IMG/VR virus record: IMGVR_UViG_3300044630_000596
Location: 1 to 24,440 of that record
Length of the DNA: 24,440 nucleotides
DNA from: a virus
Reading direction: 5' to 3' (one strand)
The notes under the pieces were generated by a model that saw only the letters and a list, made by a program, of their open reading frames with translations, did no database searches and was not told the origin of the DNA. Both the position numbers and the translations under genes were made by a program. Every line of letters starts with the position of its first letter. Position 1 is the first letter of the stretch. Below are positions 1 through 22,593 of this stretch, one piece after another.

Positions 1-540
1 GGCCGTTTATTCGGTGAAGCAATCGCTAAAAAGATTGACACAGACCTATTGGCTCTATTCTCAGGTTTCGCAACAGGTGTAGGCGGTGCAAGCACAGCAA
101 TGTCAGCGGCTCTAGTAGCCAACGCAGTGGCTCGTCTTCGTGCTAATGCAGTGCCAGGCGATCAATTGGCCTGCGTATTGAACCCATATGTGGCCTATGA
201 CTTGAAGTCAGCATTGACCAACACATTTGCAAACCCAAATGCTGGTATCATCCAGAACGAAGCAATGCAGACTGGCTATGTTGGCACACTATTTGGTGTT
301 CCAGTATTTGAATCCAGCAACATCGCTAACACTGGCACTGCTGGTGACTATGTTGGTGCTGTGTTCCACCGTGATGCACTAGGCCTAGCAATGATTGGCG
401 ATATCACAATCGAAACACAAAGACGTGCTTCGTTTGTTGGTGACGACATCGTGGCAAGTTGCCATTATGGTGTTGGCGAACTTTATGACTTATACGGTGT
501 TAAAATCACTGCAGACAGCTCATTAGTTGATCCTGCTTAA
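1..540 (+). CDS. Major capsid protein, C-terminal part (5' truncated)
   Basis: The frame is open from the first base, so only the last 179 residues are present. It forms the icosahedral head shell. The visible part has the pattern of HK97-fold phage capsid proteins: an N-terminal helix region (GRLFGEAIAKKIDTD), an Ala-rich helix (AALVANAVARLRANA), then a beta-rich domain with GTLFGVPVFESSNIA and AMIGDITIETQRR. These resemble capsid proteins of uncultured marine phages as I remember them. A TTG at 49 could be read as a start, but the coding pattern continues upstream without a break, so it is internal. A strong terminator follows within 30 bases of the stop, as expected for a highly expressed capsid transcript. 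The alternative is another major head protein. The structural role is fairly secure from sequence style and its position ahead of connector and tail genes. Confidence 0.75.
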   Translation, partial: GRLFGEAIAKKIDTDLLALFSGFATGVGGASTAMSAALVANAVARLRANAVPGDQLACVLNPYVAYDLKSALTNTFANPNAGIIQNEAMQTGYVGTLFGVPVFESSNIANTGTAGDYVGAVFHRDALGLAMIGDITIETQRRASFVGDDIVASCHYGVGELYDLYGVKITADSSLVDPA

Positions 541-566
541 TCCAAAGTAGTTTCTTTGCAAACTAG

Positions 567-600
567 AGAAGAGGGCTCACAAGGCCCTTTTCTTTTGGCT
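567..600 (+). terminator. Rho-independent terminator after the capsid gene
   Basis: A ten-pair stem (567-576 with 584-593, one G-U pair, loop TCACAAG) has an AGGGC/GCCCT core and a T-rich strand continuing TCTTTT. It lies 27 bases after the capsid stop codon. Its last 15 bases recur in the terminator at 1194-1228. Confidence 0.8.
586..600 (+). repeat. 15-bp direct repeat, left copy (cassette flank)
   Basis: CCTTTTCTTTTGGCT occurs here and again at 1214-1228. In both places it forms the 3' strand and tail of a terminator. The two copies bracket exactly the segment carrying the promoter and two small genes, consistent with insertion by recombination at terminator sequences. Confidence 0.7.
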
Positions 601-610
601 GTTTTTCACA

Positions 611-626
611 TTGACAAATCAGTCAA
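611..626. promoter_or_regulatory. Inverted repeat TTGAC-N6-GTCAA overlapping the -35 box (possible operator)
   Basis: TTGAC at 611-615 and GTCAA at 622-626 form a perfect inverted repeat separated by six bases. One arm is the -35 hexamer itself. A dimeric repressor bound here would occlude polymerase. Because TTGAC is part of the consensus -35, the symmetry could be partly coincidental. Confidence 0.35.
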
Positions 627-639
627 ACGGTGCTATTAT
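611..639 (+). promoter_or_regulatory. Sigma70-type promoter of the lipoprotein cassette
   Basis: A perfect -35 box TTGACA (611-616) is followed after 17 bases by TATTAT (634-639), with TG at 631-632 giving an extended -10. Predicted start of transcription is around 646, about 25 bases before the first cassette gene. This is the only strong host-type promoter I see in the window. Confidence 0.75.
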
Positions 640-670
640 TATACTATGATTAACACACAGAGGCTGCAGA

Positions 671-841
671 ATGAACTTCAATGAACTAACTAAACATATT
701 AGGCAGTTGAACGAACGTGAACAAGTCAAACACCACCAACGAGCGAAGGAGGCAATTGCGAGAATCCAAGAACTCCGCAGAATCGCAAGGTCACAGCAGG
801 AAACTACTGCCAGTGCGGACACCTCTGGGCGAGTTTGCTAA
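671..841 (+). CDS. Small charged helical protein, unknown function (56 aa)
   Basis: This short gene starts at ATG 671 with AGAGG at 659-663 seven bases upstream, and lies directly behind the sigma70 promoter. The protein is rich in Arg, Glu, Gln and His, with heptad-like stretches (NELTKHIRQLNEREQ, AKEAIARIQELRRIARSQQE), so it should be one or two long helices, probably a coiled coil. A basic helical protein of this size could bind nucleic acid or act as a small regulator, but no family is recognised. Its stop overlaps the region just before the lipoprotein start, so the two are likely co-transcribed. A longer competing frame at 717-953 on the same strand has weaker start context and less protein-like composition. 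Confidence 0.6.
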   Translation: MNFNELTKHIRQLNEREQVKHHQRAKEAIARIQELRRIARSQQETTASADTSGRVC

Positions 842-846
842 TTCAT

Positions 847-1131
847 ATGTGGCCGCCAAACATCACAAAATCACGCTTTGGACATTCTGGGGTAAGGTCA
901 TGGATCCTCGTGATAATGGCTTTGAACTTGTCAGCCTGCGGGACCCTGGATAAGTTTGTCTGCACTGGCACAGGCACTTGTATGGCCAATGGTCAAATGC
1001 CCGCCAACGCCGCAGCCTGGGTGTCGCCTACACCACAGACCATTATCACCAACAACGGCACATACATGATCAACCGTAGTCAATCAACAGGTGCCATAAA
1101 CAGCATCAATCAAGTGAGCCGTGGTAAATAA
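847..1131 (+). CDS. Small predicted lipoprotein (possible moron, superinfection-exclusion candidate)
   Basis: A 94-residue protein from ATG 847 has a type II signal peptide: basic N-region (KSRFGHSGVR), hydrophobic core (WILVIMALN) and lipobox LSAC with Cys at residue 31. After cleavage about 64 residues would remain on the host envelope, rich in Thr, Asn, Gly and Ser with one further Cys pair. Known phage morons in late regions include lipoproteins (lambda Bor, T5 Llp, TP-J34 Ltp), some of which block superinfection; there is no visible homology to them, so a similar role is inference. It follows the 56-residue gene by five bases and is closed by its own terminator. The Shine-Dalgarno is weak, so coupling to the upstream gene is likely. 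TTG 835 is an alternative but poorer start. Confidence 0.65.
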   Translation: MWPPNITKSRFGHSGVRSWILVIMALNLSACGTLDKFVCTGTGTCMANGQMPANAAAWVSPTPQTIITNNGTYMINRSQSTGAINSINQVSRGK

Positions 1132-1134
1132 ATT

Positions 1135-1182
1135 TAACAGAGTTTGTGACCATACCCTGTTATGAATTAGTTCTCCACTAAT
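1135..1182 (+). other. Two small hairpins in the 3' UTR of the lipoprotein gene
   Basis: TAACAG (1135-1140) can pair with CTGTTA (1157-1162), and ATTAGT (1166-1171) with ACTAAT (1177-1182, loop TCTCC). They lie in series ahead of the terminator hairpin. They may protect the 3' end or form a small processed RNA. Each stem is only six pairs, so support is modest. Confidence 0.35.
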
Positions 1183-1193
1183 CAAGACCTCTG

Positions 1194-1228
1194 GAAAGGA
1201 CCCGTTAAAAGGTCCTTTTCTTTTGGCT
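1194..1228 (+). terminator. Rho-independent terminator closing the cassette
   Basis: GAAAGGACC (1194-1202) pairs with GGTCCTTTT (1211-1219): eight Watson-Crick pairs plus one G-U, with an eight-base loop, followed by a T-rich tail. The tail is identical over 15 bases to that of the capsid terminator. Confidence 0.8.
1214..1228 (+). repeat. 15-bp direct repeat, right copy (cassette flank)
   Basis: Second perfect copy of CCTTTTCTTTTGGCT (first at 586-600), forming the tail of the second terminator. Confidence 0.7.
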
Positions 1229-1232
1229 CTGC

Positions 1233-1240
1233 TAAATATA
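1233..1240 (+). promoter_or_regulatory. T4-late-like promoter candidate (TAAATATA) before the connector gene
   Basis: GCTAAATATA contains the TAAATA core shared with the T4-type late -10 octamer TATAAATA. It sits immediately after the cassette terminator and 48 bases before the next start codon, where a promoter restarting the tail operon is needed. Activity is inferred from position only. Confidence 0.4.
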
Positions 1241-1288
1241 TCATGAGAAGAAGGACTTCTCAATCTTATTATTCGTGAAGGACACGCT

Positions 1289-1726
1289 ATGGCTTATGCA
1301 ACTTTTGACGACCTCAAACAGGTCGAACCAACGATTGACCAATATGGTGTATTGGATTGGGATGCAGAATTAGCCCGTAGCGAAACCGAAATCAACAGAG
1401 TGCTGAAAGTTCGTTGGTATCAAGCATACCAAAAGGCACATCCCTCAATATTAACTGCTGACATGGATACCACATTGCTGGATTCCACTCAGTTCAAGCA
1501 GGCCACTGTTTACCACGCATTGGCCTACCACATTGCCCCTAAACTCACACAGTTCTCAGGTGGCGAACCAGACAAATTCCAAATGATGATGACCTACTAT
1601 CAAGGTCGCTTTGAACACGAGATGGATCTTGTGCTTCGTGAAGGTGTTCGCTATGATTTGGATGATGACAACACATATGAAAGCAGTGAAGTCAAATCAG
1701 TGACTCCTTTTAGATTGGTTAGATGA
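1289..1726 (+). CDS. Head-tail connector / adaptor protein (gp6- or gp36-like)
   Basis: This 145-residue protein starts at ATG 1289 with GAAGGA six bases upstream. The N-terminus MAYATFDDLKQVEP, a helical segment (ELARSETEINRVLKVRW) and a second helix pair (QFKQATVYHALAYHIAP) fit the compact all-helical adaptor proteins that sit under the portal (HK97 gp6 or DUF1320/Gp36 style). Such adaptors are encoded between capsid and tail terminator genes, as here. The C-terminus is acidic (YDLDDDNTYESSEVK). Its stop overlaps the next start (ATGA), so translation is coupled. Assignment rests on length, position and general pattern rather than on an invariant motif. Confidence 0.6.
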   Translation: MAYATFDDLKQVEPTIDQYGVLDWDAELARSETEINRVLKVRWYQAYQKAHPSILTADMDTTLLDSTQFKQATVYHALAYHIAPKLTQFSGGEPDKFQMMMTYYQGRFEHEMDLVLREGVRYDLDDDNTYESSEVKSVTPFRLVR

Positions 1727-2172
1727 TGGCACAGAATATTCGCCAACAGGTAGCAGAAAACATTGTTCAAGTGCTCAAGGACATGACTGATCCACGTCCA
1801 GTGTTTGTGACTCGTGAACCAGTGGTGATCCAAGAATTGGCCATCACACAATTTCCTGCCATATTCGTGCAGCCAACAGTGGAAGATAGAGAAACTATCA
1901 CAATGGGTAACTCGGGAGCGGGTCGTCGTATGGGCCGGATTGAATACTCAATCCGTGCCTATGTTAGAGGTGTTGAATTAGACCGTCAGCGTAATGATCT
2001 CATAGAACGCATTGAAGAAGCTCTAGACAGCGATCGTTACAGAGAACTAATCTCAAGTGGTGTCACAGACAGTCAAATTACAAGAGTGGAGATCATAGAT
2101 CGCCAACCACCACTGGCTGAATTCTTAATTACCTATGCAGTGACCTACAATTATCTAAGAGGATCAACGTGA
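1723..2172 (+). CDS. Probable tail terminator / tail completion protein
   Basis: This 149-residue alpha/beta protein starts with a helix (IRQQVAENIVQVLKDM), followed by strands containing FPAIFVQPTVED, then RIEYSIRAYVRG, a helix (RQRNDLIERIEEALDSD) and terminal strands. This order matches lambda gpU-like tail terminators, which form a hexameric ring capping the tail tube and joining it to the head. Position between the adaptor and the tube genes agrees. Two adjacent Met codons (1723 and 1726) are possible starts; 1723 overlaps the upstream stop in the ATGA arrangement. A neighbouring minor neck protein is the main alternative. Confidence 0.55.
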   Translation: MMAQNIRQQVAENIVQVLKDMTDPRPVFVTREPVVIQELAITQFPAIFVQPTVEDRETITMGNSGAGRRMGRIEYSIRAYVRGVELDRQRNDLIERIEEALDSDRYRELISSGVTDSQITRVEIIDRQPPLAEFLITYAVTYNYLRGST

Positions 2173-2384
2173 AAATACACTTAACAAAGAAAGGCATGAC
2201 AAGATACTGTCAGCCTAATGAACTAGAACTAATGCAATCAGCAGGATGGCAAGAATCAAATGCCAAACCCGTTGAACCAGAACAGGCAGGAGAAGAGGTT
2301 ATTCGTCTCAAGCCCCCGGTGAAGTCTAAGGCGACCGTAACAGCCGTAGAAGCAGCCAATATTAAACAACAAGGAGACGAATAA
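2169..2384 (+). CDS. Small protein of unknown function in the tail operon (71 aa)
   Basis: GTG 2169 overlaps the preceding stop (GTGA), and AAGAGGA lies just upstream. The 71-residue product has a short ordered N-terminal part (KKGMTRYCQPNELELMQSAGW) and a charged, Lys/Glu/Pro-rich tail that is probably disordered. Its stop shares one base with the start of the first tube gene, so it is embedded in the coupled tail operon. The N-terminal pattern resembles small helical modules seen next to phage tail tube genes, but I cannot name a family. A minor virion or assembly role is the natural guess from context. Confidence 0.6.
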   Translation: MKIHLTKKGMTRYCQPNELELMQSAGWQESNAKPVEPEQAGEEVIRLKPPVKSKATVTAVEAANIKQQGDE

Positions 2385-2809
2385 TGGCCATATTAACAGG
2401 TAACAACGGCGTCATAAAACTAGACGCATCAGTAGGTGGTTCAGTAGCAACCATTGCCGCAGTGCGTAATTTTTCAATTGAACTCACTCGTGATACTATT
2501 GAGACAACCACAATGGGTGTGGATGTTCGCACATACTTCACAGGATTAAGTTCTTGGTCAGGCTCAGCTGATATCTATTTTGATCCAGCAGCCTCTACAG
2601 GAACCATTGCCACTCACGCAGTGCTGAATCCAACTTCAGGAACTGTGGGTCAAGCAACATTGACCTTTGAAGGTTATCTTGCAGACACAGCAGGCAAGTT
2701 CTCAGGTGAAGTTATCATCACTGGATTCACAGTAAGTGCAAGCATGGACGGAATGGTAGAGGCTTCAATCTCTTTCCAAGGTTCTGGTGCTTGCACATAC
2801 ACAGCCTAA
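2384..2809 (+). CDS. Major tail tube protein, copy 1
   Basis: This 141-residue, beta-rich protein builds the hollow tube of the phage tail around the tape measure. It is paralogous to the next gene: both share GNNG near the start, VRNFSIE.TRDTIE, a TMG.DVRTY block, GLSS.SGSAD.YFD, and a C-terminal DGMVEASISFQG. These match the TP901-1/lambda gpV-like tube family pattern (IE.T..G, tube-forming beta sandwich) as I remember it. It starts at ATG 2384, sharing one base with the upstream stop. Compared with copy 2 it has a Ser/Gly insertion near residues 13-20 and a different central loop (residues 69-95). Either copy could be the main tube subunit. Confidence 0.75.
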   Translation: MAILTGNNGVIKLDASVGGSVATIAAVRNFSIELTRDTIETTTMGVDVRTYFTGLSSWSGSADIYFDPAASTGTIATHAVLNPTSGTVGQATLTFEGYLADTAGKFSGEVIITGFTVSASMDGMVEASISFQGSGACTYTA

Positions 2810-2822
2810 TTAGGAGACCACG

Positions 2823-3245
2823 ATGGCTACAATAACAGGAAATAACGGTGCTATTACAATTGATAGCGTATCAGTATTATCAGTTCGCAATTTCTCAATT
2901 GAAATGACACGTGATACTATTGAAACAAGCACAATGGGCACAGATGTTCGCACATATATAACTGGCTTGAGTTCATTCTCAGGTTCAGCAGATGTTTATT
3001 TTGATGCTTCAGACTTTGACACCAACGAAGCCAAATTCAATCCTACTGCTGGATTGGTAGGTGTTAGTGGTGTTGCAGGCAAGTTTTATCTTGAAGAAAA
3101 CTATTCATCTACATCAGACTATGCGTTCACAGGCAATTTAATTGTGACTGGCTACACAGTCAATTCATCATTTGATGGTATGGTAGAAGCTTCAATCAGT
3201 TTCCAAGGAACTGGTGCTGCCACTTACTCAACCAATGCTGTATAA
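2823..3245 (+). CDS. Tail tube protein, copy 2 (tandem paralogue)
   Basis: This 140-residue protein is clearly homologous to the preceding gene over its full length, with nearly identical N-terminal and C-terminal blocks (SVRNFSIEMTRDTIETSTMG and FDGMVEASISFQGTGAATY) and a divergent middle (residues 60-100). ATG 2823 has AGGAG six bases upstream, a stronger site than most neighbours. The two genes probably arose by tandem duplication. The second copy may form a mixed tube, cap or initiate the tube, or carry a surface loop. Its stop shares a base with the next start. Confidence 0.72.
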   Translation: MATITGNNGAITIDSVSVLSVRNFSIEMTRDTIETSTMGTDVRTYITGLSSFSGSADVYFDASDFDTNEAKFNPTAGLVGVSGVAGKFYLEENYSSTSDYAFTGNLIVTGYTVNSSFDGMVEASISFQGTGAATYSTNAV

Positions 3246-3544
3246 TGAATCTTAAGATAGAGGTTCGCGGTGTGTCAGATACCATGAAACAGGTAGAGGC
3301 AGATTACCGCGGCTTTCTGGAGCGAGTAGCAGATACGATTGTCACAGAGGCACCCAAGTTCACACCCAAACGCACTGGCCGAGCTGCCAAGGGTTGGGAA
3401 AAGAAGATGGAGAAGGATAACTTCACTGTTGAGAACAAAGTGCCTTATGTGGGCTACCTAGAAAAACCGTATGTCAAGAGCAAACAAGCCCCAAGGGGTA
3501 TTATTGGCCCCACACTAACCTCTGTCAAAGGAAAATTAAAATGA
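3245..3544 (+). CDS. HK97 gp10-like tail/neck completion protein
   Basis: This 99-residue protein follows the HK97-gp10-like pattern: an N-terminal VRGV start, a helix (VEADYRGFLERVADTIVTEAPKF, residues about 18-40), TPKRTGRAAKGW, and NKVPYVGYLEKPY near the C-terminus, corresponding to the family's AP..TG.L and N..PYA..VE blocks. Members act in neck or tail completion. It is usually encoded before the tail terminator; here it lies after the tube genes, an unusual order. Its final TGA overlaps the chaperone start (ATGA). Confidence 0.62.
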   Translation: MNLKIEVRGVSDTMKQVEADYRGFLERVADTIVTEAPKFTPKRTGRAAKGWEKKMEKDNFTVENKVPYVGYLEKPYVKSKQAPRGIIGPTLTSVKGKLK

Positions 3545-3891
3545 GTAAAGTATTAGATAACGCAACCAGCCACTTCCGTGAAAAGATCAGTGGTGAAATG
3601 AAAAAGATCACAGTTCCTGAATGGTCCTGTGACATCTATTTCAAACCAACCCTTACGCTAAAAGAACAAGGCAAACTCATAGAGTTGGCCAGTCAAGGAA
3701 AACAAGTAGAGGCTCTAGTAGAAAGTCTAATTGTCAAAGCCCGTAACATAGACGGCTCCAAGATGTTCAATTTCGCTGACAAGGCTGCATTGCTGAATGA
3801 AGTAGATCCAAGTGTTATCATTCGTGTTGTTGGTGAGATCAATTCTGCCAATGATGAAGAAACTGATTTGGAGAAGGTAGAAAAAAACTAA
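3541..3891 (+). CDS. Tail assembly chaperone, short form (gpG-like)
   Basis: This 116-residue protein starts at ATG 3541 with AAGGA eight bases upstream. It lies between the tube genes and the tape measure, the fixed place of the tail assembly chaperone in siphophages. The sequence MKKITVPEWSCDIYFKPTLT then helices (KEQGKLIELASQG, QVEALVESLIVKARN) fit this group, which coats the tape measure and recruits tube protein. Just before the stop the zero frame reads GAA AAA AAC TAA, containing the slippery heptamer A AAA AAC, so a fraction of ribosomes should make the longer form listed separately. Confidence 0.75.
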   Translation: MSKVLDNATSHFREKISGEMKKITVPEWSCDIYFKPTLTLKEQGKLIELASQGKQVEALVESLIVKARNIDGSKMFNFADKAALLNEVDPSVIIRVVGEINSANDEETDLEKVEKN

Positions 3892-4058
3892 TAGGAGATC
3901 CAGACCTCATGTTTGCCTGCCGTTTGGCAAAAGACCTGGGTCTCACATTAGAGCAGGTGTTTGAAATGACCACTATAGAATTTCGCACATGGGTGGCATT
4001 CTATAATTGGGAACACAAAGAAATGAAGAAAGCACAACAGAAATCAAGGAGCAGATAG
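3541..4058 (+). CDS. Tail assembly chaperone, frameshifted long form (gpGT-like, 172 aa)
   Basis: A -1 shift at 3882-3888 continues from CTA 3888 in the other frame to TAG 4056-4058, adding 56 residues: L-I-G-D-P-D then MFACRLAKDLGLTLEQVF, EMTTIEFRTWVAFYNWEHKE and a basic end (KKAQQKSRSR). This extension has no start codon of its own in a good context, encodes a compact helical domain, and ends by sharing a base with the tape measure start. That is the arrangement of lambda gpGT and many other siphophages: the T domain binds the tape measure while G keeps tube subunits soluble. The frame is inferred; the product would have to be seen by mass spectrometry. Confidence 0.75.
3882..3944 (+). promoter_or_regulatory. 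Programmed -1 ribosomal frameshift signal
   Basis: Slippery A AAA AAC (3882-3888) in the correct phase is followed by a six-base spacer and a nine-pair stem, GAGATCCAG (3895-3903) with CTGGGTCTC (3936-3944), with one T-G pair. Inside its loop TTTGCC (3912-3917) pairs with GGCAAA (3926-3931). Heptamer, spacing and stem all fit the classic -1 signal. Confidence 0.8.
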
Positions 4059-18178: not shown

Positions 18179-18577
18179 ATGTCAGCAGCTTCCAATTATT
18201 TAGAGAACAAGATTCTCGATCACGTTTTAACAGCCACAGCATACACACAGCCATCACGCTTCTTGGCTCTTTACACAGCCAGCCCAGGCGAAGCAGGTAG
18301 CCACACCAATGAAGTTTCTACTTCTGGCACAGCCTATGCTCGCCAAGCAGTGACATTCGCAGCCGCAGCCAGTGGTAGTTCTGCTACCAACGCTACTGTG
18401 ACATTCCCAACTGCTACTGCAAACTTCGGCACTATCACTCACGTGGCAGTGGTTGACAGCGATGTAGAAGGTTCAGGCAATGTGCTATTCTATGGTGCAG
18501 TAACAACTTCCAAGACCATCGAAACTGGCGACACCTTTCAAGTAAGTTCTGGCAATTTGACCATCAGCCTAGACTAA
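18179..18577 (+). CDS. Short fibre-like virion protein (132 aa)
   Basis: ATG 18179 has AAGGAG six bases upstream. The 132-residue protein has an N-terminal helix (SNYLENKILDHVLTATAYTQ), then FLALYTASPGEAG, EVSTSGTAYARQAVTFAAAA, a Ser/Thr-rich strand region and GAVTTSKTIETGDTFQVSSG near the end. This pattern (LENKILDH, LALYTA.P, E.S...YAR, G.L..SK.I..GD...) recurs in many tailed-phage genomes beside fibre genes and is usually labelled tail fibre or structural protein. It has its own promoter-like octamer, structured leader and strong terminator, so it is a separately controlled and probably abundant protein. Confidence 0.65.
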   Translation: MSAASNYLENKILDHVLTATAYTQPSRFLALYTASPGEAGSHTNEVSTSGTAYARQAVTFAAAASGSSATNATVTFPTATANFGTITHVAVVDSDVEGSGNVLFYGAVTTSKTIETGDTFQVSSGNLTISLD

Positions 18578-18637: not shown

Positions 18638-19867
18638 ATGGCTAAGCCAACAATCGTTACAAGAGCGGGTAAAGGCTCAGCACTGTCTTTCGTTGAAGGT
18701 GATGCAAATTTTACTAATCTACAAAATGCTACCATATCAGTAGCAGGTGATTCAGGCACCACACAGAGCTTGGATCTCAATGACACCATAACAATTTCAG
18801 GTGGCACTGGTCTTTCATCAGCAATGACCACTGACACAGTTACACTTAATTTAGACAATACCGCAGTCACAGCAGGTTCATACACCGCAGCCAATATCAC
18901 AGTTGATGCACAAGGTCGTATCACTGCCGCAGCCAATGGCACAAGTGGTATGACTGATTTCACCGTGGCAGGTGATAGTGGAACAAGTCAAACTGTCAGC
19001 AATGGCAACACCTTGACCATCAGTGGTGGCACCAATTTAAATTCAGTGGCATCAGCAACTGATACTGTTACAATTAATCTTGACACCACAATCACTGGAC
19101 TAACCAGCGTGACATCAACCACAGTGGTTGCTGGCACAGTTACAACCAGTGGTGCTACAGATCTCGTATTGCATACCAATGCCAATACTACCAGTGGTGT
19201 TATCACCATCCAGGATGGTGTAGATGGAGACATCACTGTGGTGCCCAATGGAACTGGCAAGGTGCATTTTGAAACTTCAGAAACTCGTGTAGGTATCAAT
19301 AACACCAATGCAAAGATCACTACTAAAGGCACTGGCGATCTCACATTAGATACTAATTCAGGCACCAACTCAGGAAGTATTGTAATTCTAGATGGTGCCA
19401 ATGGTAATATCACAGTGACACCCAACGGCACAGGCAGCATCGTTCTAGATGGTCAGAACTGGCCACAAGCAGATGGCACAGCCAACTTTCTATTAAAAAC
19501 CAATGGTTCAGGTCAATTATCATATACTGATACCATAGATGGCACAAATAAAATAGGTTATAGAGTTTTGCCACCAGTAGGCACCAAAACCAGTTCATAC
19601 ACATTGGCCGTAGGTGATGTGGGTGAATATGTTCAAGTAGGTTCAGGTGGATCAATTACCATTCCTAATGCTACATTTGCAGAAGGTGATGTTGTTGTAA
19701 TTGCCAACAATCATTCTGCAGCCATAACCATTACCTGCACCATTACCACTGCCTATATTGCAGGCACTGACACTGACAAGGCCACTGTGAGTCTTGCAAC
19801 TCGTGGACTCTGCAACATTTTATTCTTGTCAGGCACAGTCTGCATTATTTCTGGGAATGTATCATAA
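18638..19867 (+). CDS. Tail fibre protein 2 (409 aa), paralogue of fibre 1
   Basis: ATG 18638 has AAGGAG upstream. The N-terminus MAKPTIVTRAGKGSALSFVE followed by GDANFTNLQNAT matches fibre 1 (MAKP.I..RA.K..AL...E.D.NF.NL..AT), so both likely attach to the same tail site. The shaft consists of Thr/Gly/Asn-rich beta repeats with recurring GDSGT, TVTINLD, and two copies of a D-G-x-x-G-x-I-x-V-x-P-N-G-T-G motif (about residues 195-208 and 254-267). The C-terminal 110 residues (from about YRVLPPVGTKTSSYTLAVGD) form a different beta domain, the presumed tip. Last base of its stop is shared with the next ATG. Confidence 0.75.
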   Translation: MAKPTIVTRAGKGSALSFVEGDANFTNLQNATISVAGDSGTTQSLDLNDTITISGGTGLSSAMTTDTVTLNLDNTAVTAGSYTAANITVDAQGRITAAANGTSGMTDFTVAGDSGTSQTVSNGNTLTISGGTNLNSVASATDTVTINLDTTITGLTSVTSTTVVAGTVTTSGATDLVLHTNANTTSGVITIQDGVDGDITVVPNGTGKVHFETSETRVGINNTNAKITTKGTGDLTLDTNSGTNSGSIVILDGANGNITVTPNGTGSIVLDGQNWPQADGTANFLLKTNGSGQLSYTDTIDGTNKIGYRVLPPVGTKTSSYTLAVGDVGEYVQVGSGGSITIPNATFAEGDVVVIANNHSAAITITCTITTAYIAGTDTDKATVSLATRGLCNILFLSGTVCIISGNVS

Positions 19868-22593
19868 TGAGTGGCTTTCTATGTTCAATGGTTGGTGCTT
19901 CATTTACAGTAGCCGCTGCGGCACAGGTCCTGCGATCTAAGAAAGGAATCACTGCTGTAGGTAATGCACAGGTTGATACAGCACAATCAAAATTTGGTGG
20001 TTCTAGTGCTCTATTTGATGGCACTGGGGATTACCTAGTTCCATCTCCTAATACAGATCTTGCATTTGGCACAGGCGACTTTACTATAGAATTTTGGTTG
20101 AGAGTTACCACAGTGTCAGGCATTAAAGTTATATATGATTCTAGACCATATCCTACGAACGGAGCATATCCTGTAATCTATCTTGATGGATCAACATTGA
20201 TCTATTTTGTTAGCAGTGCTTCTAGAATTACCACTACTATCGCTGCCAATACCTGGTATCATATCGCGGTAAGCCGTTCAGGAACTTCTACAAGATTATT
20301 TGTAAATGGAACGCAAGGTGGCAGCACTTACACTGACACCACAAACTATTCTACAGGCAATGTTATTATTGGTGCAGATCATACACCTGGCGGCAACGGT
20401 GTAATTGGACATATGGATGAAGTTCGTGTTTCCAACTCTGCTCGTTACACCACAACATTCACACCAAGCACCACACCCTTTGTCAATGACGCCAACACCC
20501 TGCTATTGATACACGCTGACGGCACAGATGGCTCAACATTCTTTGAAGATGACAATGGCATTGGACGCAGTCCTACACCTATTATTGCTCAAGGCACAGC
20601 GGCAGTTTCTACTGCACAAAGTCAGTTTGGTGGTTCTAGTATTCTTGTAGGATCAGCAGGAACAAATCTCAATGGTATCTATGTGCCAACCAATGCAGAC
20701 TATTTTGGCACAACCAGTCCTACATATCCCTTTGTCAATTGGAATTCATATGCTGGCGGTTTCACAGTTGAATTATGGGTTAGATATACTTCATTAGACG
20801 CAATTGATGATTCAGGACTTTCAACAATAGGCATTATGGATAGAGGTGATTATCCTGCACAATGGTCCTTTGGTTCTACTAGAAATGGTGCTTTGTCATT
20901 TGAATATTATAATGGTTCTACTACCCCTGTGCTTTCAAGTGCTAACAGTCAAATTGCCATTAACACTTGGTATCACATAGCAATGGTAAGAAATGGAACT
21001 AATATCAAAATATATCTTAACGGCGTAGAAAAAGGCAGTGCTACCATTAGTGGGACTCCTAGTGTGGTTGCTAGAGATTTAAGTATAGGCAGTCATTATC
21101 GTGTGGGTTCACGATCCTATGTTGATGAAATTCGTATTTCAAGCACAGCAAGATATACTGCGGGATTTACTCCATCAACCACGCCATTTGTCAATGATGC
21201 AAACACACTATTATTGATCCACGGTGACGGAACCAACGGAAGCACAGTAGTGCGTGATGACAATGGAGCATTAGCCAACCGCCAGCCTAAATATATTACT
21301 GCTGTAGGCAATGCACAGGTAGACACAGCACAATCAAAATTTGGTGGTGCCAGTGCTCTATTTGATGGCACAGATGATTATCTACGCATTAGCCAATCAT
21401 CAACTTTAAATTTAGGAACAGGTGATTTTACTATTGAATTTTGGGTCAGAGCAAATGCCCTTGGTGCCAATAACTGTATCCTAACTACAGGCACAAGTTT
21501 TGCCGCAGGTGCCTTAGGTATTGCAGGCGGATCTAGTGGTAATGGTATGCGATACTTTGACTATAATTATAATTCAAGTGGTAGTGCTCTTGTTGGTGAT
21601 CCAACAGCTTTAACTACGGGTGTATGGTATCACTATGCAATTACAAGAACTGGCAGCAGTTGGAAACTATATCGTGATGGAACCAGTGTATCAACAGGCA
21701 CCTATGCTGGAGCGGTAAATCTTGCCCATACTGATACACTTATAGGAGCCGCTGGTTGGGATATTTCTAACACTGATTGGAACGGTTGGATAGATGAACT
21801 TCGTATCTCAAACTCAGTTCGTTACACCTCTAACTTCACACCCGCAACCACAGCATTTGTCAATGATGCCAATACGCTGCTGTTAATGCATATGGATGGT
21901 GTTGATGCTTCAACCCAATTCTTTGATGACACAGCCAACAGAACGCAGAAAGGCATTAGTGCCATTGGCAATGCACAGGTAGATACTGCACAAAGTCAGT
22001 TTGGTGGCACATCAGCCCTGTTTGATGGCACAGGTGATGCACTTAATATTTCTGCTGATAGCATATTCAATTTTGGCACCAGTGATTACACAGTTGAATG
22101 TTGGATTAGATCTAGTTCATTAGCAGCCACTAGAATTATTGCGGATTTAGGTCAATATACACAGAATTCAAGACCTGTGTTTTATGTGTCCACAGATGGT
22201 AAGATCAATATCTATACAGCAGCCACAGGAGCAGTTTCAAGTGCTGGCAGCACAATCCTTATCAATACTTGGTATCATGTGGCATTGGTAAGATCAAGTG
22301 GAACCACCACTATCTATGTAGATGGTGTTAGCAAAGCCTCAACTGCAACTTCTTATAATATGTCCACCACTGCCTATTTAAATGTTGGAGCAGAAAATGT
22401 CACAACCAATAGTTGGAATGGTTGGATTGATGAGTTCCGTGTTTCAAATATTGCCCGTTATACCGCAGCCTTTACACCATCAACCACACCATTCCAGAAT
22501 GATGCCAACACCTTGCTGTTGTTGCACATGGATGGCACTGATGCCTCAACTGCGTTCTTTGACGACAACGGTATAGCACCCTACACACCTTAA
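19867..22593 (+). CDS. Large adhesin with four LamG-like (concanavalin A-like) repeats (908 aa)
   Basis: After a short N-terminal hydrophobic segment (residues 1-23) come four tandem domains of about 205-235 residues, at roughly 27-231, 235-466, 476-690 and 695-908. Each has the opening VDTAQS.FGGSSALFDGTGD (degenerate in the second), a DFTIEFW strand, the hallmark W-Y-H..(V/I)..(S/T/R)...G in the middle, an (I/V)DE.R(I/V)S...RYT turn and a closing NDANTLLL(I/M/L)H.DG(T/V)D linker. This is the Laminin-G/concanavalin A-like jelly roll that binds glycans, so a host-surface binding fibre is likely. Repeats 1 and 3 are very close at DNA level around their starts. ATG 19867 shares a base with the preceding stop. 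Confidence 0.8.
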   Translation: MSGFLCSMVGASFTVAAAAQVLRSKKGITAVGNAQVDTAQSKFGGSSALFDGTGDYLVPSPNTDLAFGTGDFTIEFWLRVTTVSGIKVIYDSRPYPTNGAYPVIYLDGSTLIYFVSSASRITTTIAANTWYHIAVSRSGTSTRLFVNGTQGGSTYTDTTNYSTGNVIIGADHTPGGNGVIGHMDEVRVSNSARYTTTFTPSTTPFVNDANTLLLIHADGTDGSTFFEDDNGIGRSPTPIIAQGTAAVSTAQSQFGGSSILVGSAGTNLNGIYVPTNADYFGTTSPTYPFVNWNSYAGGFTVELWVRYTSLDAIDDSGLSTIGIMDRGDYPAQWSFGSTRNGALSFEYYNGSTTPVLSSANSQIAINTWYHIAMVRNGTNIKIYLNGVEKGSATISGTPSVVARDLSIGSHYRVGSRSYVDEIRISSTARYTAGFTPSTTPFVNDANTLLLIHGDGTNGSTVVRDDNGALANRQPKYITAVGNAQVDTAQSKFGGASALFDGTDDYLRISQSSTLNLGTGDFTIEFWVRANALGANNCILTTGTSFAAGALGIAGGSSGNGMRYFDYNYNSSGSALVGDPTALTTGVWYHYAITRTGSSWKLYRDGTSVSTGTYAGAVNLAHTDTLIGAAGWDISNTDWNGWIDELRISNSVRYTSNFTPATTAFVNDANTLLLMHMDGVDASTQFFDDTANRTQKGISAIGNAQVDTAQSQFGGTSALFDGTGDALNISADSIFNFGTSDYTVECWIRSSSLAATRIIADLGQYTQNSRPVFYVSTDGKINIYTAATGAVSSAGSTILINTWYHVALVRSSGTTTIYVDGVSKASTATSYNMSTTAYLNVGAENVTTNSWNGWIDEFRVSNIARYTAAFTPSTTPFQNDANTLLLLHMDGTDASTAFFDDNGIAPYTP
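19945..22590 (+). repeat. Four tandem approximately 620-720-bp coding repeats
   Basis: Unit boundaries lie near 19945, 20569, 21292 and 21949. The opening segments near 19970 and 21315 share CACAATCAAAATTTGGTGG and TCTATTTGATGGCAC with few differences between. Such similarity allows recombination that changes repeat number. Confidence 0.7.

What the first reader, a model, noticed from the sequence alone, without database searches (positions are those of the whole stretch)
586..1228. Moron-like cassette with its own host promoter, helical protein and lipoprotein between capsid and connector genes
Two terminators sharing a 15-bp tail (CCTTTTCTTTTGGCT) bracket a sigma70 promoter (TTGACA, 17 bases, TATTAT), a 56-residue basic helical protein and a 94-residue predicted lipoprotein with LSAC lipobox. 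Promoter, gene and terminator inserted between late structural genes is the known signature of morons, and phage morons that encode lipoproteins (lambda Bor, T5 Llp, TP-J34 Ltp) can alter host surface or block superinfection. The flanking repeat suggests the route of insertion. Neither protein is recognised.
Basis: partly seen in the sequence, partly recalled or inferred. Interest (0 to 1): 0.72.

Follow-up and report, generated by a model that had tools for sequence, protein, structure and literature searches.

The report
Swappable phage cassette with surface lipoprotein
Between its shell gene and its tail-connector gene this lake-type bacterial virus carries a small swappable gene cassette with its own host-type promoter and a predicted surface lipoprotein, plausibly used to keep rival viruses out, and just beyond it lies a conserved, apparently undescribed RNA control element.

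Summary
Two intrinsic terminators bracket an 11/12 sigma70 promoter and small genes in the gap between capsid (1-540) and connector (1289-1726). In 64 distinct relatives with both flanks, this gap is a variable site: 39 have 25-329 bp and no accepted gene, 25 carry 538-3149 bp of cargo. Homology to relatives breaks exactly at 600 (end of terminator 1) and resumes at ~1195-1209 (terminator 2). A promoter follows the capsid gene in 23/25 cargo loci versus 4/39 short ones. In 23/25 cargo loci a small secreted protein is the last co-oriented gene; about 14 have a lipobox. That is moron behaviour.

Corrections: the 15-bp repeat is the U-tract of two terminators; a third, purifying-selected NUMOD-like gene (756-953) overlaps both others; the lipoprotein's signal peptide is overprinted on it. 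The mature lipoprotein is under purifying selection (dN/dS ~0.2) but matches no known family. Superinfection exclusion in the Llp/Cor/Rtp45 manner is the best guess, untested.

Outside the coordinates, 1233-1288 holds two tandem AGGA-loop hairpins with strong covariation, once per genome, in front of this connector gene or (one lineage) its neighbour. They have no Rfam match and are probably the more novel feature.

The parts
1..540 (+). 3' part of the major capsid protein gene, left flank of the site
   Evidence: PHROG 267 major head protein E 8e-21; 57-59% identical to the MCP of Pelagibacter phages HTVC026P/111P/112P
565..600 (+). Terminator T1 with tail CCTTTTCTTTTGGCT; left boundary of the exchangeable segment is its last base (600)
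   Evidence: fold z -3.0; homology to L003, L008 ends at +60 after the capsid stop
611..639 (+). sigma70-type promoter TTGACA-17-TATTAT with TG before the -10
   Evidence: 11/12; promoter of 10/12 or better in 23/25 cargo loci vs 4/39 short junctions, background 4.5% of 220-bp windows
660..674 (+). GAGGCTGCAGAATGA: codes E-A-A-E-stop across the next start codon, likely the 3' remnant of an upstream cargo gene
   Evidence: upstream cargo genes in relatives end in EAAE/EVAE/KVAE directly before this gene; inference for the window
671..841 (+). 56-aa basic helical-looking protein gene
   Evidence: conserved in about a dozen relatives; dN/dS 0.17 over codons 1-28; no family match
756..953 (+).
   Evidence: open in 11 relatives, dN/dS 0.21 downstream of 841; no Pfam match itself, longer cargo relatives show NUMOD1/NUMOD3 and HNH_3
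847..1131 (+). 94-aa predicted lipoprotein, lipobox LSAC (Cys31), mature part 64 aa with Cys39/Cys45 and a predicted C-terminal beta-hairpin; start probably coupled to the 841 stop
   Evidence: mature part dN/dS 0.19-0.23; hydrophobic segment and lipobox; strands predicted at 64-92, pLDDT about 74-78
1166..1182 (+). Small hairpin ATTAGT-TCTCC-ACTAAT upstream of T2; TTCTCC-type loops also seen in several relatives
   Evidence: folds; relatives read by eye
1193..1228 (+). Terminator T2 with the same tail; right boundary of the exchangeable segment (homology resumes at 1195-1209)
   Evidence: fold z -2.8
1232..1238 (+). CTAAATA, element like a T4-type late promoter (TATAAATA in other relatives)
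   Evidence: present in 71 of 72 leaders; the exception is a truncated contig
1244..1262 (+). Leader hairpin 1, TGAGAAG-AAGGA-CTTCTCA
   Evidence: 97.6% of cells paired, 4 of 5 pairs with compensatory changes
1274..1286 (+). Leader hairpin 2, CGTG-AAGGA-CACG; the loop is the Shine-Dalgarno sequence of the connector gene
   Evidence: 98.4% of cells paired, 4 of 4 pairs with compensatory changes
1289..1726 (+). Connector-position gene (145 aa, no library match), right flank; followed by the tail terminator gene 1723-2172
   Evidence: position; neighbour matches PHROG 4204 tail terminator

Best explanation
Positions 601 to about 1194 are an exchangeable accessory (moron) cassette sitting in a variable site of a siphovirus-type late operon. 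Shown by comparison: the insert starts right after terminator T1 and ends at terminator T2, is present in some relatives and absent in others, and its promoter goes with its genes. Inferred: T1 stops late transcription after the capsid gene; host RNA polymerase reads the cassette from the sigma70 promoter independently of late control; T2 stops that transcript, and a late-promoter-like CTAAATA restarts the connector and tail genes. The last gene, the constant part of the site across relatives, makes a small exported protein that here would be lipidated at Cys31 and, with no Asp at +2, go to the outer membrane. Most likely role (about 0.4): it binds an outer-membrane protein from the periplasmic side and blocks adsorption of competing phages, as Llp does with FhuA and Rtp45 with LptD. 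The two small intracellular proteins are probably passengers (a NUMOD-type DNA-binding fragment and its partner). Cassettes would be swapped by recombination in the conserved flanks, including the terminator tails.
For: Gap 25-3149 bp in 64 distinct relatives with gene-free forms; breakpoints at 600 and 1195-1209; L012 and L016 share 96% DNA identity over the capsid 3' end but have gaps of 202 and 1647 bp; presence/absence needs 15 changes on the capsid tree, at least 10 forced by supported branches, and 6 on the connector tree. Promoter 23/25 vs 4/39, Fisher 3e-11. Small secreted protein in 23 of 25 cargo loci, the last co-oriented gene; 21 of those 23 proteins exceed hydropathy 1.9 while 3 of 65 other cargo proteins exceed 2.0. 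Mature lipoprotein dN/dS about 0.2. Where the signal frame leads into a secreted domain it reads WILVIMA or similar (8 of 8); where it does not it reads WIPEIMA/WTQEIMA/WTPEIMA (3 of 3). Size, cysteine pair and hairpin parallel Rtp45 and Llp (PMC12685063, PMC9586334).
Against: No sequence or fold match to any exclusion protein: Cor (PHROG 1119) is hit only through the signal-peptide region (E 0.061, and 0.0036 for a relative), PDB searches give nothing, and the model is poor (pLDDT 61.5). No transcript data. The signal-peptide region shows no constraint in its own frame (dN/dS 1.17), so export could be weak or recent. Host and lifestyle unknown; the nearest complete relative, DSL-LC06, was predicted virulent (PMC10611076), so a benefit to a lysogen is not evident. 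Some of the 25 cargo loci are close relatives, so counts are not fully independent, and short junctions offer less sequence in which to find a promoter.
Confidence: 0.62

Rival explanations
1. It is a mobile or selfish cassette driven by homing-endonuclease relatives; the lipoprotein is a hitch-hiker. NUMOD/HNH proteins cut empty junctions and spread the segment.
For: NUMOD-like gene overlaps both other genes here; HNH_3 or NUMOD proteins in L045, L084 and L117 cargo; DSL-LC06 and L103 carry an HNH gene on the minus strand in the same slot.
Against: The window's NUMOD-like ORF has no nuclease domain and many cargo loci lack HNH; a secreted protein, not a nuclease, is the constant trait (23/25).
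Confidence: 0.15
2. The lipoprotein is an outer-membrane spanin (o-spanin) or other lysis factor.
For: Small lipoprotein; very weak Rz-like spanin hits for relatives (E 0.06 or worse); no lysis gene identified in the window.
Against: More than half of the relatives lack it; no inner-membrane partner (the 56-aa protein has no hydrophobic segment); own host-type promoter; several relatives make non-lipidated exported versions.
Confidence: 0.08
3. The secreted protein alters the host surface or metabolism during infection (envelope stress, nutrient uptake, grazing) without excluding phages.
For: The complete relative DSL-LC06 is rich in glycan and LPS enzymes; exported proteins are diverse in sequence.
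Against: Fast turnover with a constant export trait fits phage competition at least as well; nothing distinguishes the two here.
Confidence: 0.2
4. The 94-aa ORF start is wrong and the protein is not exported; only a cytoplasmic or leaderless form is made.
For: Over 845-922 selection acts on the NUMOD frame, not on the signal frame; weak SD before 847.
Against: Relatives with the same mature domain have ordinary signal peptides with a lipobox (L035 LTGC, L045 VTGC); charge pattern of the signal frame; hydrophobic core and lipobox correctly spaced.
Confidence: 0.12

Closest known systems
Phage morons (lambda Bor type; Ltp of Streptococcus phage TP-J34)
   Same: Promoter, small gene(s) and terminator inserted between phage genes, absent from relatives; an exported lipoprotein; Ltp has been argued to be a moron (PMC3952083).
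   Different: Ltp lies in the lysogeny module of a temperate Gram-positive phage; this cassette is between capsid and connector genes of a phage of unknown lifestyle; multigene and multi-allelic; no sequence relation found.
Llp of phage T5 and Cor of T1/phi80 (superinfection-exclusion lipoproteins)
   Same: Small lipoprotein, mature 61 aa (Llp) against 64 aa here, internal cysteine pair, predicted to sit at the outer membrane (PMC9586334).
   Different: Only the signal-peptide region resembles Cor; cysteine spacing differs (Cys11-Cys58 in Llp against positions 9 and 15 of the mature protein here); Llp lies next to the receptor-binding protein gene.
Rtp45 of phage Rtp
   Same: About 6 kDa lipoprotein with closely spaced disulphide cysteines (Cys30-Cys38) and a long partly beta-stranded hairpin (PMC12685063).
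   Different: No detectable sequence or fold match; a structural parallel from description only, not a test.
NUMOD-bearing homing endonucleases
   Same: TPLGxFxNSYxAAxxH-type motif; HNH and NUMOD proteins among the cargo of relatives.
   Different: The window's ORF is 65 aa, without nuclease domain and without a Pfam hit of its own.
CsrA/RsmA target hairpins (for the adjacent leader)
   Same: A GGA in each of two hairpin loops, one of them the Shine-Dalgarno sequence (general knowledge of CsrA sites).
   Different: No CsrA gene in 20 records searched; first loop position is T in 12 of 55 leaders; host CsrA unknown.

Membership tests
Moron | Insert present in some and absent in other close relatives, with a defined boundary | tested here: met
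   39 of 64 junctions short and without accepted genes; boundaries 600 and 1195-1209
Moron | Own promoter and terminator | tested here: met
   by sequence only; no transcript data
Moron | Atypical base composition relative to neighbours | tested here: not met
   GC 0.43-0.48 across the cassette, as in the flanks; a common but not required trait, and cargo may come from related phages
Moron | Expressed from the prophage / benefit to the lysogen | not testable with these tools
   no integrase identified in the window, host unknown, no expression data; no capsid relative in genome contigs
Superinfection-exclusion lipoproteins (Llp/Cor/Rtp45) | Sequence homology to the family beyond the signal peptide | tested here: not met
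   PHROG 1119 hit covers residues 20-42 only, E 0.061; no PDB sequence or fold match
Superinfection-exclusion lipoproteins (Llp/Cor/Rtp45) | Small lipoprotein with lipobox and no Asp at +2 | tested here: met
   LSAC-G in the window, rule-based script; no SignalP
Superinfection-exclusion lipoproteins (Llp/Cor/Rtp45) | Blocks adsorption to an outer-membrane receptor | not testable with these tools
   needs an experiment
o-spanin | Adjacent or nested inner-membrane spanin partner | tested here: not met
   56-aa and 65-aa partners have no hydrophobic segment by reading their sequences
NUMOD domain protein | Pfam NUMOD match | tested here: inconclusive
   no Pfam hit for the 65-aa ORF; L084 cargo protein matches NUMOD1 (E 0.0019) below the cut-off
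CsrA-regulated leader | Two GGA hairpin loops, one over the SD | tested here: met
CsrA-regulated leader | CsrA present in phage or host and binding shown | tested here: inconclusive
   none in the phage records; host unknown, binding not testable

The most novel reading that the evidence does not exclude
The junction combines two new things: (1) a dedicated cassette dock whose constant cargo is a fast-diversifying family of exported or lipidated proteins, here with a signal peptide overprinted on a NUMOD-like gene; and (2) directly downstream an undescribed family of cis-regulatory RNA, tandem AGGA-loop hairpins over the connector gene's ribosome-binding site, once per genome, acting as a translational operator of the tail operon.
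Probability: 0.5. Interest if true: 0.65.

Novelty: new variant of a known kind. Interest (0 to 1): 0.5.

Why it matters
It identifies a site in a widespread group of uncultivated aquatic phages where small exported proteins are swapped, so candidate superinfection-exclusion or surface-altering proteins can be listed by locating the site rather than by homology, which fails for them. The overprinted signal peptide is a worked case of a secreted protein whose export signal lies in another gene's alternative frame. The neighbouring leader RNA is well supported by covariation and gives a directly testable question: what binds two AGGA hairpins in front of the connector gene.

Tried and rejected
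Megablast of window 1-4000 against phage records: nothing. tblastn of the lipoprotein against phage records: nothing. Lipoprotein profile and capsid in bacterial genomes, to find a host or prophage: nothing. AlphaFold of the lipoprotein from a 4-sequence alignment: pLDDT 61.5, PDB fold search meaningless. PADLOC for defence functions in the cargo: nothing convincing. Phage-encoded CsrA as a binder of the leader: none in 20 records. Rfam: nothing at gathering scores in the window, only sub-threshold chance hits in 540-1400. Insertion by target-site duplication: rejected, since the repeat is terminator tail and tail-like sequences also stand at gene-free junctions. dN/dS on the signal-peptide frame does not show constraint, so it was not used as support. 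A common C-terminal motif (GxY...VIQTSRGK) links several exported types but not the AYNGGKNTWYPG type, where profiles align only over the signal peptide.

Full report
What the window is. The window is an IMG/VR linear virus record of 24,440 bp. Its capsid protein is 57-59% identical to Pelagibacter phages HTVC026P, HTVC111P and HTVC112P; it has a tail terminator, tail tube, tape measure and lambda-J-like fibre gene, so it is siphovirus-like. Host and lifestyle are unknown: no relative of the capsid was found in bacterial genome contigs.

The observation. The promoter is the only plus-strand 11/12 match in the window. Terminators were predicted by folding (z about -3 each) and are not proven.

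Comparison. I fetched relatives by capsid and by connector protein and measured the gap from capsid stop to connector start in distinct junctions. Of 64 with both flanks, 39 have a gap of 25-329 bp (the longest, L139, with only one minus-strand ORF call that I discarded) and 25 have 538-3149 bp with genes. The window itself is represented in this set by L001, which is identical to it over the junction (gap 748 bp). Pairwise alignment shows where homology breaks: against L003 and L008 it runs to +60 after the capsid stop, which is base 600, and resumes at about 1195; against gene-free L012 it resumes at about 1209. These are the ends of T1 and T2. On the capsid tree presence or absence of cargo changes at least 15 times, 10 forced by well-supported branches; on the connector tree 6 times. 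The cassette is therefore exchanged often and follows the connector side more closely.

Promoter. A sigma70-like match of 10/12 or better lies within 220 bp of the capsid stop in 23 of 25 cargo loci and in 4 of 39 short junctions; 4.5% of all 220-bp windows have one. Short junctions offer less sequence, and some loci are near-copies, so the Fisher value (3e-11) is indicative.

Genes. Frame-by-frame selection over 11 relatives: the 56-aa ORF is constrained (dN/dS 0.17 before the overlap); from 845 to 922 the +1 frame is constrained (0.21), which is a NUMOD-like ORF starting at TTG 756 behind a strong SD; the lipoprotein frame over the same bases is not (1.17), while its mature part is (0.19-0.23 in two comparisons). 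The lipoprotein's signal peptide is thus written over the end of another gene. Supporting use of that frame, the eight relatives in which it leads into a secreted domain have no charge in the hydrophobic stretch, and the three in which it does not have a glutamate there. Sequence GAGGCTGCAGAATGA at 660-674 looks like the end of a lost upstream gene.

The constant cargo. In 23 of 25 cargo loci a small protein with an N-terminal hydrophobic segment is the last co-oriented gene before T2 (in L103 a minus-strand HNH gene follows it); about 14 of these proteins have a lipobox and the others look like signal-peptidase-I substrates (rule-based, no SignalP). Several types share a C-terminal motif. The rest of the cargo varies: NUMOD and HNH proteins, an AAA-type ATPase (PHROG 1250), a glycosyltransferase-like protein, many unknowns. 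DSL-LC06 has a minus-strand HNH gene in the same slot.

Function. Nothing identifies the lipoprotein by homology. By build it resembles Llp and Rtp45: a short mature part, a cysteine pair and a beta-hairpin. I put superinfection exclusion at about 0.4, other envelope effects at 0.2; steps from promoter to export are inferred.

The leader downstream. Between T2 and the connector start, 71 of 72 relatives have TAAATA (the exception is truncated). Most then have two hairpins with loop (A/T)AGGA, the second over the Shine-Dalgarno sequence. On 49 sequences 97.9% of pair cells are standard pairs against 67.5% in shuffles, covariation score 0.796 against 0.203, with all slid versions far lower. Stems vary freely while the asymmetric loop is kept, which argues for RNA rather than a DNA operator. 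A covariance model finds one strong copy in each of 19 virus records and in DSL-LC06 (most of these records also contributed to the model, so the finding is that there is no second strong copy). In one lineage (L143) the hairpins sit instead before the next gene, a connector-like protein. A pattern scan of 2.9 million viral contigs gave 63 stretches; of 48 distinct ones 45 are followed by a relative of the connector gene, down to 31% identity, and the other 3 run off the contig end. Rfam has no match. A protein-bound translational operator is the likeliest reading; a CsrA-type binder is possible but none is phage-encoded.

Noticed in passing
1233-1288, and the same leader in about 60 relatives: Tandem AGGA-loop hairpins with strong covariation before the connector gene; no Rfam match; one per genome.
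   Followed up: yes
1232-1238; L190 (DSL-LC06) 4441, 9013, 11271, 16729, 18925: TAAATA/NATAAATA elements like T4 late promoters, several 30-71 nt before gene starts in DSL-LC06; not tested against chance.
   Followed up: partly
L011, L034, L051, L121 junctions: T1, a consensus -10 and T2 with no ORF between: an emptied cassette or a small non-coding RNA.
   Followed up: no
L046, L016 junctions: The promoter's -35 TTGACA lies inside the loop of terminator T1.
   Followed up: no
1166-1182 and relatives: Hairpin with TTCTCC-type loop just upstream of T2; possible anti-Shine-Dalgarno motif.
   Followed up: no
19867-22593: 908-aa protein with four Laminin-G-like lectin domains, adhesin-like.
   Followed up: no
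L190 (DSL-LC06, complete 29.8 kb): No annotated replication, lysis or integrase gene but several glycan and LPS enzymes.
   Followed up: no
18096 and 18179-18577: TATAAATA about 80 bases before a second head-protein gene (PHROG 240, E 1.6e-28) far from the capsid gene.
   Followed up: no
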